Shown here piece by piece: positions 49,391-60,402 of a stretch of 64,000 nt of DNA. Both the position numbers and the translations under genes were made by a program. The stretch is from Corynebacterium efficiens YS-314. GTDB taxonomy: Bacteria; Actinomycetota; Actinomycetes; Mycobacteriales; Mycobacteriaceae. Under the pieces are notes generated by a model. The model ran no database searches. It was not told the DNA's origin and was given only the letters and a program-made list of their open reading frames with translations. Within the stretch, counting starts at the first letter, position 1; every line of letters starts with the position of its first letter. Location: the NCBI RefSeq assembly GCF_000011305.1, contig NC_004369.1:496001-560000 (forward strand), written 5' to 3'.

Positions 49391-49413
49391 GGTCAAGATG
49401 CTCCTATAGTGTG

Positions 49414-50097
49414 TCAAGCGCTTTGTAGAAGTTTTTCGTAGGCAGTGGTTAATTCCATCAACGGGCGTTTTCCCGTTTCAATATCGCTGATCCTGGCAGG
49501 AGCGCACCCAAGACGATCCGCTATCTCTGCCTGAGTCAGGTGCTGGGCCTGACGACGTTGCTTTAAGTCTGGGCGACGCAGATCCCTCGGTTCAGGCCGG
49601 CTGGACTGTGCGCACAGCACGCGGTAAACCTCGCGCACGATGGCCCGCTTGAGACAGCGAATGATCTCCTTTTTCGACAATCCTTCCGCGGTGCGTTTAG
49701 CCACGTAGTCTTTGGTGCGTTGGTCACATCCCATGCGAACTACCGCGATTCGGTACAAAGCTGAATTCGCCCGCCGATCCCCACCACGGTTGAGTCTGTG
49801 GCGGGTGGTACGCCCAGAACTCGCTGGCAGTGGTGCCACGCCACATAGCTGAGCCAGGGCCGCCTCGGATGGGATACGTTCTGGATTCTCACCGATGCTG
49901 ACGATCAGTTCAGCGGCGATCAGCGGGCCGCTGCCGACTATGTTGCTGACATATGGGTTGATCCGTGAGAGAAGAGAACTGATCCGGGCCTCTAGCTCAT
50001 CGCATCGCCTACGCAACTGAAGGTATGTTGTAGCAAGAATCTTCAGGCTGGAGGCAACGGCATTCGCCGGGTTGTGATCGTCCGCTCCTGGCCGGCC
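49414..50097 (-). pseudogene. IS110-family transposase, C-terminal half of element BC
   Basis: Begins in coding sense at about 'RPGADDHNPANAVASSLKILATTY' and continues through the transposase C-domain 'ASSGRTTRHRLNRGGDRRANSALYRI' to a fused XRE-type helix-turn-helix 'LTQAEIADRLGCAPARISDIETGKR'. From the first Arg to the stop it has exactly 226 residues, identical to the equivalent part of the intact copy. The frame upstream of 50097 is IS3 sequence. The N-terminal half is at 52921-53478. Confidence 0.88.
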
Positions 50098-50164
50098 AGG
50101 ACCTGACCCCCGGATGGTAGACACCCTGATGCCAGCATGATGCTGGGAAAGGTAATCTGCCACC

Positions 50165-50473
50165 ATGCCAAGCAAGACCTACACAGAGGAGTTCAAGCGC
50201 GACGCTGTCGCCTTGTATGAGAACTCCCCAGGGGCTTCGATTCAGACCATTGCCGCTGACCTCGGGATCAACCGGGCTACCCTTCATAACTGGTTAAAGA
50301 AGTACGGGACAGGTGCGCGCACCAAAACCGGCACCGCGGAGTCGCCCTCGTCGATGTCGGTGACCGAGGCTGAGCGGATCCGCCAACTAGAACGGGAAGT
50401 CAGCCGACTGCGCGAAGAGCGTGACATCCTGCGGAAAGCAGCCAAATATTTCGCGGAAGAGACGAACTGGTGA
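50165..50473 (+). CDS. IS3-family transposase OrfA
   Basis: A 102-residue helix-turn-helix/leucine-zipper protein: 'YTEEFKRDAVALYENSPGASIQTIAADLGINRATLHNWLKKYG' binds DNA, and a heptad-like 'IRQLEREVSRLREERDILRKAAKYFA' helix mediates oligomerisation. It overlaps orfB by four bases in the next frame, the usual set-up for programmed -1 frameshifting to the OrfAB transposase. The sequence appears intact. Confidence 0.92.
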   Translation: MPSKTYTEEFKRDAVALYENSPGASIQTIAADLGINRATLHNWLKKYGTGARTKTGTAESPSSMSVTEAERIRQLEREVSRLREERDILRKAAKYFAEETNW

Positions 50474-51366
50474 TCCGCTTCCAGTTCGTTGACGACGCCC
50501 AGAAGAACCATTCGGTTAAGCGGATATGTGAAGTCCTGAAACTCAACAGGTCCTCCTATTACAAATGGAAAAACAGCAGCTCAGCCCGGAGAAAACGACT
50601 CATATCCGACGCCATCCTCGGTGCACGGGTCACGACTGTCTTCACCGCCGAAAATGGTTGCTACGGGGCCAAACGGATCACGGCCGAACTCAAAGATCAG
50701 ATAGATCATGACCCCGTGAATCACAAGCGGGTCGCCCGGATCATGCGCTCGTTGAAACTGTGTGGATACACCAAGAAACGCAAGGTCACCACCACCGTGT
50801 CCGATCAGAAGAAACCAGTGTTTCCTGACCTTGTCGGTCGGAAATTCACCGCCGACAAGCCGAACCAGCTCTACGTCGGGGACATTACCTACCTACCGAT
50901 CGCGGATGGGTCGAATATGTACCTGGCCACGGTTATTGATTGTTATTCCCGCAGGTTGGTGGGTTTTTCTATCGCAGATCACATGCGCACGAGCTTGGTC
51001 CAGGATGCGCTGCTGATGGCCAAGGGCCAGCGCGGAAACCTCAAGGGTGCGATTTTTCACTCGGACCACGGCAGTGTTTATACGTCGAACGCATTCCAGG
51101 ACGCCTGTAAAGACCTCGGGATTAAGCAGTCGATGGGATCAATCGGGACCAGTGCTGACAACGCCCTCGCGGAGTCCTTCAACGCAGCACTGAAGCGGGA
51201 AGTCCTCCAGGATTCCAAGACATTCATGAACCAGTTGCTCTGTCGCCGGGACGTCTTCCGCTGGTGTACCCGCTATAACACGGTGCGCCGGCATTCCTGG
51301 TGCAGATATCTCGCCCCTGCGGTGTTTGAGGAGCGTGGTCCTGCTATCCTGAAATCTGCTTCCTGA
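50470..51366 (+). CDS. IS3-family transposase OrfB (DDE integrase core)
   Basis: A 298-residue rve-type core. An N-terminal HTH_21 region 'NGCYGAKRITAELKD' precedes the catalytic residues: Asp in 'LYVGDITYLPIADG', Asp in 'IFHSDHGSVYTS' and Glu in 'NALAESFNAALKRE'. The C-terminus 'YNTVRRHSWCRYLAPAVFEE' is family-like. The frame is open, so the coding part is intact, but the right terminal repeat of the element is separated from it by the IS110 insertion. Confidence 0.92.
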   Translation: MIRFQFVDDAQKNHSVKRICEVLKLNRSSYYKWKNSSSARRKRLISDAILGARVTTVFTAENGCYGAKRITAELKDQIDHDPVNHKRVARIMRSLKLCGYTKKRKVTTTVSDQKKPVFPDLVGRKFTADKPNQLYVGDITYLPIADGSNMYLATVIDCYSRRLVGFSIADHMRTSLVQDALLMAKGQRGNLKGAIFHSDHGSVYTSNAFQDACKDLGIKQSMGSIGTSADNALAESFNAALKREVLQDSKTFMNQLLCRRDVFRWCTRYNTVRRHSWCRYLAPAVFEERGPAILKSAS

Positions 51367-51396
51367 TTAAATCCTTCGTGATGCTCCTATGGTGTG

Positions 51397-52626
51397 TCAA
51401 GCAGTTTTAAGGAATTCTTCGTAGGTTAACTTCAACTCCGATAGTCGACGCTTGCCGGTTTCAATATCGCTAATTCTTGCTGGAGCGCATCCAAGTTTCT
51501 TGGCGACTTGGGTTTGTGAAAGCCCTTTTTTCGAGCGCAGAGCTCTGAATTCATCGCTACGCAACCCACTGGATTGTCTCACAGGTCGCCCCAGACACAG
51601 CACTTGATAGATCTCTCGGACGATGGCGCGTTTTAAGCACCGCATGATTTCTTTCTTCGACAACCCTTCTTTGATTCGACGTTGAACATAGTCCCTGGTG
51701 CGTTCATCGTGACGCATCCTGACCAGGACTATGCGGTGCAGTGCTGCGTTGGCTTGGCGATCACCCCCTCTATTTAACCGGTGTCGGTTCGTCCGCCCTG
51801 AGCTCGCCGGGATAGGTGCAACGCCCCACAGATGAGCCAACGCAGCCTGTGATCGGATCCGTTGTGGATTCTCACCGAGGCTCACCAGCAATTCTGCGGC
51901 AGTAACAGCCCTGCAGCCGAAAATTTGTGTCATCGCGGGATTGATGACCTCGACCAGATCGGTGATCTTGTTATCGAGTTCATCGCATTGCGCCCGCAGC
52001 ATGTTGTAGGTGGTAGCCAAGCTCTTCAAACTGGTTAAGGTGCCATTGACGGGATCAGTGACATCTGCGGGTGGGCGGCACCGCGACAATGTCATAACCA
52101 GGGTGGTGGTCGTCATCGTCGCATAACGCTGCCGAACAGTCACGGGGGCCGTGACCAGCAGAGACTTGATGAGAGTCAATAGTTTTGCCGCCGTGGCGAC
52201 CAGTTGATGGCGGGTAATCTGGAGCATGCGCAGTGACTCCACTGGCCCGGTGGTGTCTTTCGGGATGCTGAGTGCTTGACCGGTGAGCACCTGCCGGGCG
52301 GCGGCGAGTGCATCAACAGGGTCTGATTTGCCATCCCGGCGTCGAAGGGCACGGGTAGGACGCAAAACCTCGAAAACTACATGTCCATGGCCAATAAGAT
52401 GCCGGGTCAGACCAGCTCCGTAGGAGTTAGTACCTTCTATCCCCGCAGCTACGACGCTGTAAGCTGAGAGGAACTCGGTGACCTGCTGGTATCCGTTGCT
52501 GGTGGTGGGAAAGGTATCGGTCGCCAGATGTTTACCAGTCTCGGTCACGATGGCCACGGTGTGGGTATCGGTGTGCGTATCGATGCCGGCTACGGGGCCA
52601 GCAAGGTCAATGGTTGGTGTGGGCAT
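51397..52626 (-). CDS. IS110-family DEDD transposase with C-terminal XRE domain
   Basis: A 409-residue recombinase with a RuvC-like N-terminal domain: 'VAGIDTHTDTHTVAIV' (Asp), 'AAGIEGTNSYGAGLTRHL' (Glu) and 'RDGKSDPVDALAAARQVL' (Asp pair). The C-terminal Transposase_20 domain includes 'GCRAVTAAELLVSLGENPQRI' and the serine motif 'PASSGRTNRHRLNRGGDRQANAAL'. An additional XRE helix-turn-helix at the end ('LSQTQVAKKLGCAPARISDIETGKRRL') is unusual for the family. ATG 52626 was chosen by alignment with the BC copy; a longer frame exists. Confidence 0.9.
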   Translation of the reverse strand: MPTPTIDLAGPVAGIDTHTDTHTVAIVTETGKHLATDTFPTTSNGYQQVTEFLSAYSVVAAGIEGTNSYGAGLTRHLIGHGHVVFEVLRPTRALRRRDGKSDPVDALAAARQVLTGQALSIPKDTTGPVESLRMLQITRHQLVATAAKLLTLIKSLLVTAPVTVRQRYATMTTTTLVMTLSRCRPPADVTDPVNGTLTSLKSLATTYNMLRAQCDELDNKITDLVEVINPAMTQIFGCRAVTAAELLVSLGENPQRIRSQAALAHLWGVAPIPASSGRTNRHRLNRGGDRQANAALHRIVLVRMRHDERTRDYVQRRIKEGLSKKEIMRCLKRAIVREIYQVLCLGRPVRQSSGLRSDEFRALRSKKGLSQTQVAKKLGCAPARISDIETGKRRLSELKLTYEEFLKTA

Positions 52627-52689
52627 GATGTTCACGGGCTTTCTGAAGCGGTGGGACACGGGGGATCCACATATCCGGAGCTTCAGACA

Positions 52690-52897
52690 GACAAGACGCT
52701 GATGGGACTACTACCATGACACCTGCCAGGGTGGTCACGGAAACGGTCACGCTCCTATAAGGTCATGACCGAAACTCCGGATCGCGGTACGGGACCGGAA
52801 CTACTCCGAAAGACAGATCACGAGCAAGGCACACAGTGTGGCCAGTCCACTTTGGGGTCATTTCGGATGGCTCCGATCCCGTACTCCCATTATCAGC
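52690..52897 (-). ncRNA. candidate bridge RNA region of IS110 element A
   Basis: Non-coding end upstream of the transposase, on the same strand. Blocks shared with element BC flank a small hairpin (TGGCCACA/TGTGTGCC). Segments beside it match this copy's own target: GTCCACTTT (52845-52853) equals the right flank, and CACGA (52819-52823) is the complement of the left flank TCGTG. GCTCCTAT (52751-52758) repeats the element's left end. Inferred by analogy with IS621-type bridge RNAs. Confidence 0.5.
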
Positions 52898-52920
52898 GTC
52901 CACTTTCCGGGGGTCGGGCC

Positions 52921-53478
52921 CCAACGAGACAGGGCAATGATCAGGGCGTGGTTGGTCATCGTGGTATAGCGGGCCCGGATGTCATCGGGTGCGGTGACCA
53001 GCAACGACTTGATCGTATTCATGAGTTTGACGGTCGTTGAGACCAACTGTTTCCGGGTGATGTGCAGCGTTCTTAACGATTCGACTGGCCCGGTCGAATC
53101 TTTAGGGATACTCAACGCTTCCCCGGTGAGGACTTGCCGGGCGGCAGCCAGGGCATCGACTGGGTCTGATTTGCCGTTGCGCCGACGAACTGCGCGGGTC
53201 GGGCGCAGCACCTCGACGACCGTATAGCCGGCGTCAACGAGATGGCGTGTTAGTCCTGCCCCGTAGGAGTTGGTTCCTTCGATCCCCACGGTGCCGACAC
53301 CGTGGGCGTTCAGGAACTTCGCCAGGTGTGTATAACCCGACGTGGTGGCAGGAAACGTTTCGGTCGCCAGATGCTGGCCCGTAGCGGTGATAGCGGCGAC
53401 GGTGTGGGTATCAGTATGGGTGTCGACCCCGGCGATAGGGGGAGACAGGATGGGGATATCTGTGATTGTCATGGGCAT
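52921..53478 (-). pseudogene. IS110-family transposase, N-terminal half of element BC
   Basis: Starts 'MPMTITDIPILSPPIAGVDTHTDTHTV' and includes the Glu ('VGIEGTNSYGAGL') and Asp ('RNGKSDPVDALAAARQVL') motifs. It is interrupted after 'IIALSRW' at 52921, where IS3 sequence begins. It pairs in order and frame with the C-terminal half at 49414-50097. ATG 53478 or 53472 is possible; AAAGAG favours the second. Confidence 0.87.
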
Positions 53479-53529
53479 CTCTTTCGACAGAAGGGGGTTA
53501 CCTACGGCCGCGGATCCGAGATGTCGGGC

Positions 53530-53745
53530 AGACAAGACGCTGATGGGACTACTACCATGGCACCTGCCGGGGTGGTCACGGTGAGAGGTCACGCTCCTAT
53601 GAGGTCATGACCGCATCACCGGATCGCGGTGCGGGGCCGGAACCGGCCCGGAAGACAAATCTTGACGAAGGCACACAGTCAGACTGTGGCCAGTCCATAG
53701 GTGGGTCATTCCGAGTGGTTCCGGTCCCGCACTCCCATTATCAGC
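53530..53745 (-). ncRNA. candidate bridge RNA region of IS110 element BC
   Basis: Same layout as in element A, with a longer hairpin (CACAGTC/GACTGTG). At the equivalent left-guide position it has CTTGAC (53661-53666), the complement of its own target GTCAAG, whereas A has CACGA. The right guide shares GTCC (53693-53696) with its target and then diverges. GCTCCTAT recurs at 53593-53600. Confidence 0.5.
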
Positions 53746-53925
53746 GTCCGCGGGAGTGGTGTATCTGCCCTTTCGATAAAACAAGCAGCGTAACGACCTC
53801 ACGGACCATCACGAGCTAGAAACCGGTGCCGGTTCATGCCACTTCCCTCCGCGTAACCTCAGGCGCAGCAGCCTCCGCATCGATGATATTCACCGTCATC
53901 ATCGCCCTGGTCTGCTCCAAGCTCG

Positions 53926-55086
53926 TCAACGACATGTACCGCTTTGCTGGATCCAATCATCATGCTGTTCCGCCAGCACCGCCCCGACCAGACGGATCAC
54001 CGCATCCCGGTTCGGGAAGATCCCCACCACATCAGTGCGCCGGCGGATCTCACGATTGAGCCTCTCGGTCGGGTTATTCGACCACACCTTGGTCCACACC
54101 GCCTTCGGGCACTGCGTGAACGCCAGCAGCTCATCCAGGGCTTCTTCCAGGTAATCAGCCACATCCGGGAACTTCTGCTGACAGAACTCCACCACATCCC
54201 TGGCCTGAGCCCACACAGATGCCGCATCAGGCTGCTGGAAAATCGTGTGGAACATCGCCGACAATGTTGGCCACTGCGTTTTCGACACCATCCCGTACAG
54301 GTTCTTGGAAAAGTGCGTGCGACACCGTTGCCACGAGGCATTCGGCAACACCTCACCAATCGCGTGCTGAATTCCCAGGTGGGCATCACTGGTGACCAGG
54401 TAGACCTCATTGAGCCCTCGGGCTTTCAAGTCGCGGAAGAAGCCCGTCCAGGATGCCACTGACTCACTCGTTGCAACCTGCATGCCCAACAACTCCCGAT
54501 ACCCTTCGGCGTTGACACCGGTGGCCAACAGGACAGAAGTCTTGACCACTCGCCCGCCTTCGCGAACCTTCATGGTTAGTGCGTCGCACGAAACATAGAG
54601 GTAGGGTCCGGTATCAAGAGGGCGGGTGCGGAATTCTTCGACCATGACATCAAGATCTTTCGCCATCTCCGATACCTGGGACTTCGAGAGACTATTGATC
54701 CCTAAGGTGGCGACCAAGTCGTTCATCCGCCGGGTGGACACACCCTTCAAATAACACGTGGCAATCACGGTGGTCAGCGCTCGTTCAGCCCTCGTGCGCC
54801 GTTCCAGCAACCAGTCGGGGAAGAACGATCCGGTGCGTAGTTTCGGGACCGCGACATCGACCGTGCCGACCCGGGTGTCGAAGTCGCGGTGGCGGTATCC
54901 GTTGCGGGTGTTAACCCGGTCCTGAGACACGGTGGCGTAGTCGGCGCCGCACACCTGGTCGGCTTGGGTGGAGAGGATCTGGTTGATGAAGCCTTGAAGC
55001 ATTTCTCGCATGAGATCGGGGGATGCTTGGGCGAGCAATTCGTCGAGGTAGGTGGTGGGGTCGATAGAATAGGGTCCAGCGGCCAT
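53926..55086 (-). pseudogene. IS256-family transposase, copy 2, C-terminally frameshifted
   Basis: 386 residues from the native start 'MAAGPYSIDPTTYLDELLAQ' with all three catalytic motifs. After 'EQHDDWIQQ' a single-base deletion near 53943 (GCTTTGCTGG against GCTTCTGCTGA in copy 1) changes the frame, so it ends 'SGTCR' instead of the ~40-residue native tail. Another 3-base deletion lies in the lost tail near 53872. Whether the truncated protein is active is unknown. Confidence 0.85.
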
Positions 55087-55243
55087 CGTGGGTTGTCCTT
55101 TCGAGGATATGTAGGAGTTGAGTCGAAAGGTACCTGCGGTGGTCGCCTCATGTGTTCATGGGGTCCCTCACCGGCAGTTACAGATACACCACGCTAATGG
55201 ACTCCACCGGAAATATAAAAAGCCCACTCTAAGATGACAGGGT

Positions 55244-57069: not shown

Positions 57070-57438
57070 ATGCCAACTATTCAGCAGCTGGTCCGCAAGG
57101 GCCGCCACGATAAGACCGCTAAGGTGGCTACCGCGGCACTGAAGGGTTCCCCTCAGCGTCGTGGCGTGTGCACCCGTGTGTACACCACCACCCCCAAGAA
57201 GCCCAACTCCGCTCTGCGTAAGGTCGCCCGTGTGCGCCTCACCTCCGGCATCGAGGTTTCCGCCTACATCCCGGGTGAGGGCCATAACCTCCAGGAGCAC
57301 TCCATGGTGCTCGTCCGTGGTGGTCGTGTGAAGGACCTTCCGGGTGTCCGTTACAAGATCATCCGTGGTGCACTGGACACCCAGGGCGTCAAGGACCGCA
57401 AGCAGGCTCGTTCCCGCTACGGCGCGAAGAGGGGATAA
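57070..57438 (+). CDS. rpsL: 30S ribosomal protein S12
   Basis: Decoding-centre protein of 122 residues: '[19 protein letters not shown]' start, then '[22 protein letters not shown]' and '[21 protein letters not shown]'. Both lysines whose change gives streptomycin resistance in other bacteria (in PKKPNS and GRVKDLPG) are present in wild-type form. rpsG starts 6 bases later. The start ATG has GAAATAAGGATGGTTC upstream. Confidence 0.98.
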
Positions 57439-57444
57439 GAAACA

Positions 57445-57912
57445 ATGCGTAAATCAGCAGCTCCCAAGCGTCCTGTAGTCAAGGACCCAGTATACGATTC
57501 CGAGCTCGTCACCCAGCTCGTGAACAAGATCCTCCTCGACGGCAAGAAGTCCACCGCAGAGCGCATCGTCTACGGCGCTCTCGAGATCTGCCGCGAGAAG
57601 ACCGGTCTCGAGCCGGTCGGCACCCTCGAGAAGGCTCTGGGCAACGTCCGCCCCGACCTCGAGGTCCGTTCCCGCCGTGTCGGTGGCGCAACCTACCAGG
57701 TTCCTGTCGAGGTTCGCCCGGCACGTGCCACCACCCTGGCTCTGCGTTGGCTGGTGACCTTCACCCGTCAGCGTCGTGAGAACACCATGGTGGAGCGTCT
57801 CGCCAACGAGATCATGGATGCAGCCAACGGCCTTGGCGCTTCCGTGAAGCGTCGCGAGGACACCCACAAGATGGCAGAGGCCAACCGCGCCTTCGCTCAC
57901 TACCGCTGGTAG
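57445..57912 (+). CDS. rpsG: 30S ribosomal protein S7
   Basis: Primary 16S rRNA 3'-domain binder of 155 residues, standard length. '[30 protein letters not shown]', '[32 protein letters not shown]' and the C-terminal '[14 protein letters not shown]' are typical. RBS AGGGGATAAGAAAC overlaps the rpsL stop, so translation is coupled. Confidence 0.98.
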
Positions 57913-58275
57913 TAAGAAATGCCATGACCGCCCAATCACTTCTCCCCACCGGCTGTCCGACTGCGTCCGTTCCACGGTCGTACCGCACAGTCATGGTGGG
58001 GAAACGGTGACTGGGCTTTTGGTCTCATTAGTGGAGATCAAAACCCCGCGACCTCTCCGGTCGCCACTGCCTGGGCAGTGTGTTACACAGGAACTTACAC
58101 GTGGTTGCGGCTGGCACTATGCCAGCACCACCACTTAGTGGCAAAATGTAACGAGAGAATTATCCGTAGGTGTCTGACCTGATCATCTGGGCACCGGGAA
58201 CTGAACCCGATGGGATCAACTCCCGGTGCCCCGGTGGGAGGGGAAGCGCCACAACCAACAAGTTGGGGTACCACT
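57913..58275. other. rpsG-fusA intergenic region
   Basis: 363 bases with no gene. A hairpin TTTTGGTCT/AGATCAAAA is visible at 58017-58044. I could not settle on a fusA promoter; GGGGTACCACT precedes the GTG. Confidence 0.3.
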
Positions 58276-60402
58276 GTGGCACAAGAAGTGCTTAAGGATC
58301 TGAACAAGGTCCGCAACATCGGCATCATGGCTCACATCGACGCCGGTAAGACCACGACCACCGAACGCATCCTCTTCTACACCGGCATCAACCGTAAGGT
58401 CGGCGAGACCCACGACGGTGGCGCAACCACCGACTGGATGGAGCAGGAGAAGGAACGCGGCATCACCATCACCTCCGCCGCGGTGACCTGTTTCTGGAAC
58501 GAGAACCAGATCAACATCATCGACACCCCGGGTCACGTCGACTTCACCGTCGAGGTCGAGCGTTCCCTCCGTGTCCTCGACGGCGCAGTTGCTGTTTTTG
58601 ACGGCAAGGAAGGCGTTGAGCCACAGTCCGAGCAGGTCTGGCGTCAGGCCACCAAGTACAACGTCCCACGTATCTGCTTCGTCAACAAGATGGACAAGCT
58701 GGGCGCTGACTTCTACTTCACCGTGGGCACCATCGAGGACCGCCTCGGTGCGAAGCCACTGGTCATGCAGCTCCCGATCGGTGCAGAGGATGCCTTCGAC
58801 GGCGTCGTCGACCTCATCGAGATGAAGGCTCTGACCTGGCGCGGCACCACCGAGATCGGCACCGAGGCCACCGTCGAGGAGATCCCCGCTGATCTCGTCG
58901 ACCGCGCCCAGGAGTACCGCGAGAAGCTGCTCGAGACCGTCGCAGAGTCCTCCGAGGAACTCATGGACCGCTACTTCGGTGGCGAGGAGCTGACCATCCC
59001 GGAGATCAAGGCCGCCATCCGCAAGATGGTCGTCAACTCCGAGGTCTACCCCGTGTTCTGTGGCACCGCCTACAAGAACAAGGGTGTCCAGCCACTGCTC
59101 GACGCTGTCGTCGACTACCTCCCGAGCCCACTGGACACCGGTGAGGTCGAGGGTATCGACGTGAAGGACCCGGAGGTCACCCTGACCCGTAAGCCTTCCG
59201 ACGATGAGCCACTGTCCGCACTGGCCTTCAAGATCGCAGCACACCCGTTCTTCGGCAAGCTGACCTTCGTCCGCGTCTACTCCGGCAAGGTTGAGCCAGG
59301 CGAGCAGGTCCTGAACTCCACCAAGGGTAAGAAGGAGCGCGTCGGCAAGCTCTTCCAGATGCACGCCAACAAGGAAAACCCTGTTGAGATTGCACACGCC
59401 GGCAACATCTACGCGTTCATCGGCCTGAAGGACACCACCACCGGTGACACCCTCTGCGACCCGAACAACCCGATCATCCTCGAGTCCATGGACTTCCCGG
59501 ATCCGGTGATCCAGGTTGCCATCGAGCCGAAGACCAAGTCCGACCAGGAGAAGCTGGGTGTCGCCATCCAGAAGCTCGCTGAAGAGGACCCGACCTTCAC
59601 CGTCCACCTGGACGAGGAGTCCGGCCAGACCGTCATCGGCGGCATGGGCGAGCTGCACCTCGACGTCCTGGTCGACCGCATGAAGCGCGAGTTCAAGGTT
59701 GAGGCCAACATCGGTGACCCACAGGTTGCCTACCGTGAGACCATCCGCAAGCCGGTTGAGTCCCTCAGCTACACCCACAAGAAGCAGACCGGTGGTTCCG
59801 GCCAGTTCGCTAAGGTCATCATCTCCATCGAGCCTTACGCACCTGCACAGGAAGAGCTGGAAGAGGGCGAGTCCGCCATCTACAAGTTCGAGAACGCCGT
59901 CACCGGTGGACGTATCCCGAAGGAATACATCCCCTCCGTGGACGCAGGTATCCAGGACGCCATGCAGTACGGCTACCTCGCCGGCTACCCGCTGGTCAAC
60001 GTCAAGGCCACCCTCGAAGACGGTGCCTACCATGACGTCGACTCCTCGGAAATGGCCTTCAAGCTCGCCGGTTCCCAGGCGTTCAAGGAAGCTGTCGCCA
60101 AGGCGAAGCCGGTTCTGCTCGAGCCGATCATGTCCGTTGAGATCACCACTCCTGAGGAGTACATGGGTGAGGTCATCGGTGACGTGAACTCCCGTCGTGG
60201 ACAGATCTCCTCCATGGAGGACCGTGCCGGCGCCAAGCTGGTCAAAGCCAAGGTTCCGCTGTCCCAGATGTTCGGCTACGTCGGTGACCTCCGCTCCAAG
60301 ACCCAGGGTCGTGCAAACTACTCCATGGTCTTCGATTCCTACGCTGAGGTTCCCACCAACGTTGCTGCAGACGTCATCGCAGAGCGCAACGGCACCGCTT
60401 AA
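58276..60402 (+). CDS. fusA: elongation factor G
   Basis: Ribosomal translocase GTPase of 708 residues. G1 '[19 protein letters not shown]', the G2 region '[10 protein letters not shown]', G3 'DTPGHVDF' and G4 '[10 protein letters not shown]' are visible, with domain IV '[20 protein letters not shown]' near residue 555. GTG 58276 was chosen by family start ('[17 protein letters not shown]'); a longer frame of 22 residues is not conserved. No fusidic-acid-type change can be judged without alignment. Confidence 0.98.

What the first reader, a model, noticed from the sequence alone, without database searches (positions are those of the whole stretch)
52690..53745. IS110 elements carry candidate bridge RNAs whose guide segments match their own different targets
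Both IS110 copies have 260-280 bases of non-coding sequence upstream of the transposase with shared blocks around a short hairpin. In register beside that hairpin, element A has CACGA while its left target ends TCGTG, and element BC has CTTGAC while its left target reads GTCAAG. On the other side element A has GTCCACTTT, identical to its right target GTCCACTTT (52898-52906); BC shares only GTCC there. Both also repeat GCTCCTAT from the element's own left end. One guide is the complement and the other is the same sense as the top strand, as expected for a bispecific RNA (established for IS621/IS110). If correct, these corynebacterial IS110s are RNA-programmed recombinases with loops visibly re-tuned per insertion.
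Basis: partly seen in the sequence, partly recalled or inferred. Interest (0 to 1): 0.85.

Follow-up and report, generated by a model that had tools for sequence, protein, structure and literature searches.

The report
RNA-guided jumping genes in other transposons
Two jumping genes in this Corynebacterium genome appear to encode a guide RNA that matches the spot where each one sits, usually the tip of another jumping gene, and relatives with different guides sit in correspondingly different spots, as expected for the recently discovered bridge-RNA recombinases.

Summary
Both IS110 elements carry, upstream of the transposase, a conserved hairpin whose internal loop holds two guides: one equals the left target, the other complements the right target. 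In the 35 Corynebacterium copies with both ends readable (of 40 rows) guide and target track each other: mean match 8.81 of 11 against 4.97 for swapped pairs, 0 of 20,000 shuffles. A scan of all registers of the leader ranks the two guide registers first. Nine more distant elements, not used to build the RNA model, give 9.56 against 4.51, 0 of 20,000. The donor guide covaries with the element's own end, the hairpin shows compensatory changes, and the joined ends would form a promoter (33 of 34). Correction: guides are tuned per lineage, not per insertion; seven copies of A share one guide pair. This is a well-supported new member of the known IS110 bridge-RNA kind, with variant features (C core, terminal helix-turn-helix). 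Transcription and activity are untested.

The parts
51380..52897 (-). IS110 element A, from the right end (ATC in sense) to the first base of the left end (GCTGATAATGG in sense)
   Evidence: Ends set by comparing seven copies and two relatives and uninterrupted IS3-type ends
51397..52659 (-). Transposase of A, 420 aa: DEDD domain, Transposase_20 domain with catalytic-type serine, C-terminal helix-turn-helix
   Evidence: DEDD residues and serine aligned with ISCro4 and, through L082, IS621
51380..51396 (-). Right non-coding end of A (17 bases), with left donor sequence ATAGGAGC; the -35-like TTGACA (51395-51400 in reverse) overlaps the stop codon
52779..52884 (-). Target hairpin of the putative bridge RNA of A
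   Evidence: Covariance model hit 108.5 bits (A is in the model); pair counts; fold z -3.33 for 52680-52890
52846..52854 (-). Left target guide of A (AAAGTGGAC in sense)
52820..52825 (-). Right target guide of A (complement of CACGAG)
52751..52758 (-). Left donor guide of A (ATAGGAGC in sense)
52695..52704 (-). Right donor guide of A (complement of GACGCTGATG)
52889..52894 (-). -10-like GATAAT that meets TTGACA of the right end when the ends are joined (18-base spacing)
   Evidence: 33 of 34 copies with TTGACA, 34 of 34 with GATAAT
52898..52906 (-). Left target of A, inside the end of the IS3-family element
51375..51379 (-). Right target of A (ACGAA in sense)
49397..53745 (-). IS110 element BC, interrupted by the IS3 element (which itself contains A)
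   Evidence: Ends; transposase halves
52922..53479 (-). 5' part of the BC transposase gene (approximate)
   Evidence: DEDD domain
49414..50098 (-). 3' part of the BC transposase gene (approximate)
   Evidence: (Transposase_20 and helix-turn-helix)
53621..53732 (-). Target hairpin of the putative bridge RNA of BC
   Evidence: Model hit 131.6 bits (BC is in the model); fold z -4.34 for 53525-53735
53693..53701 (-). Left target guide of BC (CCTATGGAC in sense); weak match to its site, 3 of 6 plus GAC
53662..53666 (-). Right target guide of BC (complement of TTGAC); 5 of 5 match
53593..53600 (-). Left donor guide of BC
53536..53545 (-). Right donor guide of BC (complement of GACGCTGATG)
50099..52921 (+). 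IS3-family element inserted in BC and itself carrying A in its right end (approximate ends)
   Evidence: orfA and orfB; rve domains; ends seen
53746..55208 (-). IS256-family element that holds BC near its left tip; its last bases are at 49391-49396 beyond BC (ends inferred from other IS256-type ends)
   Evidence: Transposase_mut; ends

Best explanation
A and BC are IS110-group insertion sequences that move by bridge-RNA-guided recombination. Inferred cycle: the element leaves as a circle; its joined ends make a promoter (TTGACA from the right end, GATAAT from the left end) that transcribes the leader; the RNA forms a long target hairpin with a left guide (six variable bases plus GAC, pairing with the bottom strand) and a right guide (five bases, pairing with the top strand), followed by a donor part whose guides pair with the element's own ends; the DEDD/serine recombinase then exchanges strands at a shared C, with GAC in the target and ATC in the donor. 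Shown here from sequence: guide-target covariation, donor-guide covariation, hairpin with compensatory changes, junctions without duplication, promoter-like joined ends. Inferred: transcription, RNA binding, circle, catalysis. In Corynebacterium different lineages have guides that match ends of different IS3- and IS256-family elements, and a few copies sit at other sites.
For: 12 guide types match their own sites at 8.81 of 11 against 4.97 when swapped, 0 of 20,000 shuffles. Unbiased register scan puts the two guides first. Held-out distant elements 9.56 against 4.51, 0 of 20,000. Agreement falls to the swapped-pair level just outside the guides at -11, -10 and +6, +7. Right donor guide 4.88 of 5 against 3.09, 0 of 20,000. 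Hairpin: 38 two-sided cells against 13.9. Joined ends TTGACA-18-GATAAT in 33 of 34. Uninterrupted sites. IS110 domains and catalytic residues.
Against: No transcript, binding or recombination data. BC matches its left site in 3 of 6 variable positions only, L049 and L119 match the right site in 2 of 5. A mismatches its right target at the fifth position in all seven copies. No separate 5' stem-loop as in IS621 and no well-supported donor-loop fold. In the hairpin count one measure (further pair types) was reached by 499 of 500 shuffles. Of 23 loci searched with the model, 7 gave no hit, among them L101, a 45% relative.
Confidence: 0.94

Rival explanations
1. The match reflects common descent or co-mobilisation: related elements inherit both leader and flank, so guides and flanks look correlated without any RNA guidance.
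For: Several copies share flanks because they sit in copies of the same IS family, and three distant elements share one left guide.
Against: Shuffling whole guide types leaves 0 of 20,000; with five hand-picked target classes the true pairing is 1st of 120. Solitary sites without a neighbouring IS3/IS256 transposase match as well: L030 9, L041 10, L046 9, L047 8, L055 7 of 11. Agreement is confined to the two loop registers.
Confidence: 0.03
2. Target choice is made by the protein (for example by the C-terminal helix-turn-helix) and the loop repeats are relics of target sequence captured into the leader.
For: The Corynebacterium transposases carry a helix-turn-helix.
Against: A and L030 are 88% identical in protein yet have different guides and sites; L063 and L082 follow the same rule without a detected helix-turn-helix; the two guides lie on opposite strands and face each other in one internal loop.
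Confidence: 0.02
3. The leader hairpin is only an attenuator or terminator of the transposase gene and the guide matches are incidental.
For: A stable hairpin lies just before the gene; a double role is not excluded.
Against: Does not explain covariation of loop with target or of donor guide with the element's end.
Confidence: 0.01

Closest known systems
IS621 bridge RNA system (IS110 group; PMC11208160 sections 5, 6, 7, 12 and passages; PMC11208158 passages)
   Same: Guide RNA in the left end, promoter rebuilt at the circle junction, target loop before donor part, left guide equal to the top strand and right guide complementary to it, DEDD plus serine recombinase.
   Different: Shared core is C (GAC in target, ATC in donor), not CT; target hairpin has a long basal stem and no separate 5' stem-loop was found; Corynebacterium proteins have an added C-terminal helix-turn-helix; sites are mostly IS ends.
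ISEc21 seekRNA (IS110 type; PMC11187229 passages and section 13)
   Same: Target-matching bases in the upstream non-coding region, bottom-strand match before top-strand match; natural redirection between relatives was reported there.
   Different: Here many lineages and independent insertions of one clade show the redirection, and donor guides covary as well.
IS1383 into IS1384 inverted repeats, and IS4321/IS5075 into Tn21-family ends (titles seen only in reference lists)
   Same: IS110/IS1111-family elements that insert in terminal repeats of other mobile elements.
   Different: Here one clade uses ends of IS3- and of IS256-family elements, with the guide change visible.

Membership tests
IS110 family | DEDD RuvC-like domain plus C-terminal domain with conserved serine | tested here: met
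   PF01548 and PF02371 in A and in the two halves of BC; D26, E74, D112, D115, S285/S286 of A invariant in nine proteins and lining up with ISCro4/IS621
IS110 family | Insertion between two target halves without a target duplication | tested here: met
   Uninterrupted IS3-type and IS256-type ends and the L055 site
IS110 group (IS621 type) | Left end much longer than right end; guide RNA encoded in the left end | tested here: met
   Right end 17 bases; hairpin and guides in the left end
IS110 group (IS621 type) | Promoter rebuilt across the joined ends | tested here: met
   Sequence only: TTGACA-18-GATAAT in 33 of 34 copies, TTGACC in one
Bridge RNA | Target loop with left guide (bottom strand) and right guide (top strand) that covary with the target | tested here: met
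Bridge RNA | Donor guides complementary to the element's own ends | tested here: met
   Right donor guide covaries, 4.88 of 5; exact left donor guide ATAGGAGC in 47 of 48 leaders
Bridge RNA | Fold: 5' stem-loop, target loop, donor loop | tested here: inconclusive
   Target hairpin well supported; no separate 5' stem-loop and no clear donor-loop fold
IS621 and close orthologues | CT core dinucleotide in target and donor | tested here: not met
   Only C is shared between target GAC and donor ATC. This excludes IS621 itself, not the IS110 family
Bridge RNA | RNA is transcribed, binds the recombinase and is required | not testable with these tools
   Needs experiments
IS1111 group | Guide RNA in the right end, downstream of the gene | tested here: not met
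   Right end is 17 bases; hairpin is upstream

The most novel reading that the evidence does not exclude
A Corynebacterium branch of bridge recombinases specialises in the terminal repeats of unrelated insertion sequences: it re-tunes both target guides from one IS family, or one end of the same IS, to another, works with a one-base core, and carries an added DNA-binding domain that may regulate or dock it. Insertion in the repeat would disarm the host insertion sequence, making the element a parasite, and perhaps a brake, of other transposons.
Probability: 0.3. Interest if true: 0.6.

Novelty: new member of a known kind. Interest (0 to 1): 0.47.

Why it matters
Bridge RNAs were described in 2024, with detailed work on a few elements such as IS621 and ISEc21. 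This clade is a natural experiment: close relatives with different guides at correspondingly different sites, uninterrupted copies of the targets in the same genomes, and a core that differs from CT. It gives a tractable set for learning pairing rules (six plus five positions, constant GAC and ATC) and for asking why such elements settle in the ends of other transposons.

Tried and rejected
The first attempt to set the ends by agreement among the seven copies overshot, because copies share the flanking IS3 end; ends were then set with L007-L009 and uninterrupted IS3-type ends. Rfam gave nothing for the leader (one sub-threshold hit outside it, E 0.58). A search for an uninterrupted L047 site found only the interrupted genome itself (1 of 41 genomes); for L055 it found uninterrupted homologues in G007 (70%) and G013 (65%), with the interrupted genome 3 of 41. 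In the first run of the distant test a motif error mis-read the left guide of L060 and missed those of L082 and L057: 7 complete of 14, 8.86 against 4.51, 2 of 20,000; the motif was mended after seeing this and the test repeated. Retuning per insertion was rejected. A one-base stagger of the cuts was considered from the clean GAC/ATC junctions but is not claimed, because in IS621 the strands are cut several bases apart and mismatches may be repaired (passages). Rows dropped: from the 43 loci looked at, the four distant ones L044, L045, L050, L101 were set aside (L044, L050 later used in the distant test; L045, L101 gave no model hit); of the remaining 39 loci plus BC (40 rows), L038, L043, L051 (no left end found), L042 and L054 (no right end) were dropped. 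Of 14 model hits taken into the distant test, L058 and L064 (right site cut by the contig end), L061, L062 and L050 (ends or guides not found) were dropped; L108 overlaps L050 and was not taken.

Full report
Where it lies. Its genus is Corynebacterium: same-genus genome G181 holds the 5,794-base contig that names C. flavescens.

Element ends. The genome has seven copies of A with identical proteins and two relatives at 67% and 62% identity. Comparing them gives sharp junctions: target...GAC | GCTGATAATGGG on the left and ATAGGAGCATC | target on the right. Eight uninterrupted IS3-type ends in the same genome, 83-91% alike, read GACACGGAGG through the site, so insertion adds and removes nothing. 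A spans 51380-52897 and BC spans 49397-53745.

Anatomy of the window. BC sits six bases inside the left tip of an IS256-family element (53746 to about 55208, plus 49391-49396; transposase). An IS3-family element (about 50099-52921) interrupts the BC transposase, and A sits in the right end of that IS3 element: a four-level nest. The exact tips of the IS256 and IS3 elements are inferred from other copies.

Guide-target covariation. I compared the six bases before GAC and the five bases after the right junction with the loop, leaving out the constant GAC and ATC. Of 40 rows, 35 had both ends. The mean match of 12 guide types with their own sites was 8.81 of 11, against 4.97 (sd 0.63) for swapped pairs, 0 of 20,000 shuffles; left part 4.98 of 6 against 2.86 (0 of 20,000), right part 3.83 of 5 against 2.13 (1 of 20,000). 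For five hand-picked target classes the true pairing ranks first of 120. Against 2,332 GAC sites elsewhere in the window, 24 of 35 insertions beat every site and the other 11 lie in the best 1.1%. Weak cases: BC left 3 of 6; L049 and L119 right 2 of 5; L055, L106, L116 and L119 in sum 7 of 11.

Those positions were chosen after looking, so I also scored every six-base register of the leader against every target register on both strands, 5,676 per strand. Twelve passed the listing threshold; eleven are shifts of the two guide registers, including the top ten; the other is an unrelated stretch at leader columns 233-238. Per-position agreement is 0.62-0.99 at -9 to -4 and 0.57-0.88 at +1 to +5, each above the swapped-pair level; at -11, -10 and +6 it is at or below that level, at +7 about equal, at +8 slightly above (0.38 against 0.29).

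More distant relatives. A covariance model of the target hairpin from 15 Corynebacterium leaders was run on the window and 23 loci. Apart from the window and L042, which are in the model, 15 loci gave a hit in the sense of the transposase, 14 after merging the overlapping L050 and L108 (weak, E 0.058); 7 loci gave none (L010, L012, L013, L043, L045, L051, L101). Several of these seven are fragments or lie at contig ends, but L101 is a 45% relative with flanks. Hit loci include Geodermatophilus, Blastococcus, Pseudarthrobacter, Brevibacterium, Saccharopolyspora, Nocardia and Cryobacterium (names) and two Corynebacterium elements at 44% identity. Weaker hits on the opposite strand of the same hairpins also appear. 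Nine of the 14 gave complete sets: 9.56 of 11 against 4.51 (sd 0.81), 0 of 20,000; an earlier run with a faulty motif gave 8.86 from 7, 2 of 20,000. L066, L059 and L075 share one left guide and are not independent.

Donor side. The right donor guide complements the element's left end and changes with it: GCTGA in 24 leaders, ACTGA in 13, and six further variants in the distant elements; eight distinct pairs give 4.88 of 5 against 3.09, 0 of 20,000. The left donor guide ATAGGAGC equals the right end and is exact in 47 of 48 leaders; the exception is L039, which has a three-base gap there. Joined ends give TTGACA-18-GATAAT in 33 of 34 copies and TTGACC in one, L030. For IS621 the promoter is likewise rebuilt in the circle (PMC11208160, section 5).

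Hairpin. On 15 leaders the target hairpin has 30 pairs in three helices, 97.3% of cells paired, 11 pairs with two-sided changes (7.5 in shuffles; 9 of 500 reach it) and 38 such cells (13.9; 0 of 500). Versions slid by 1-3 columns give at most 47.5% paired and 4 two-sided cells. One measure goes the other way: the number of further pair types (22) was reached by 499 of 500 shuffles. The guides lie in the internal loop between the second and third helix. Single-sequence folds of A and BC are more stable than shuffles (z -3.33 and -4.34). No separate 5' stem-loop appears, and the donor part has no well-supported fold.

Targets. In 29 of 34 copies an IS3- or IS256-type transposase match (E up to 1e-5) lies in the flank held, in 25 of 34 within 200 bases of a junction; L030, L041, L046, L047 and L055 have none (BC not in this count, but it lies in an IS256 element). 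Nearness alone proves little in IS-rich genomes; the uninterrupted IS ends, which read through the site, are the stronger evidence. L030, 88% identical to A in protein, has a left guide ending TTGGTAGAC that matches a left-end form of the IS3 type (GTTTGGTAGACACCTAAC beside L001), whereas A matches the right end (AAAGTGGAC). The L030 site itself carries that sequence within a palindrome, with no IS3 gene found beside it. L055 sits inside an open reading frame; the joined flanks read through in one frame and align with an uninterrupted homologue in G007 with no gap at the junction. Sites without a neighbouring IS still match: L041 10, L030 9, L046 9, L047 8, L055 7 of 11.

Mechanism. The best-supported reading is bridge-RNA-guided recombination as in IS621. 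The constant bases fit the handshake model (inference; IS621 passages): next to the core the right target guide reads AT, the donor's bases, and the right donor guide reads GA, the target's bases, as if each accepts the partner strand after exchange. Between target GAC and donor ATC only C is shared, so the core is C rather than CT.

Protein. A has both IS110 domains and a C-terminal helix-turn-helix, and so has the 3' half of BC. Of eight further proteins scanned, the six Corynebacterium ones have the helix-turn-helix and L063 and L082 have none detected. The solved IS621 and ISCro4 chains are 328 and 341 residues, A is 420.

Literature. IS110 bridge RNAs and seekRNAs are established: PMC11208160 (sections 5, 6, 7, 12 and passages), PMC11208158 (passages), PMC11187229 (passages and section 13), where natural redirection is reported. 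Insertion of such elements in ends of other mobile elements is in print (titles in reference lists). Listings for Corynebacterium with IS110 (14 papers), IS110 with IS256 and terminal repeats (10 papers), bridge-recombinase terms (28 listed) and IS110 with helix-turn-helix (12 listed of 30) show no title on bridge RNAs of Corynebacterium; I did not read those papers, and the library is partial. Verdict: new member of a known kind.

Noticed in passing
window 49391-55208: Four-level nest: IS256-family element holding IS110 BC, holding an IS3-family element, holding IS110 A.
   Followed up: yes
window 51397-52659: The IS110 transposases of this Corynebacterium clade carry a C-terminal helix-turn-helix not seen in L063 and L082; role unknown.
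   Followed up: partly
L038, G094:C1 about 238543-239978: The left end of this IS110 copy seems split by an IS256-type element within its donor-guide region, with an apparent 8-base repeat (GCGTGACC) at the two junctions.
   Followed up: no
L039: Three bases are missing from the left donor guide; the copy may be unable to excise.
   Followed up: no
L030 junctions: The target is a near-perfect palindrome bearing an IS3-like end sequence but no IS3 gene beside it; perhaps a miniature element or a terminator.
   Followed up: partly
window 57070-60402: Open reading frames that look like rpsL, rpsG and fusA (names from recall, not searched) lie a few kb beyond the insertion nest.
   Followed up: no
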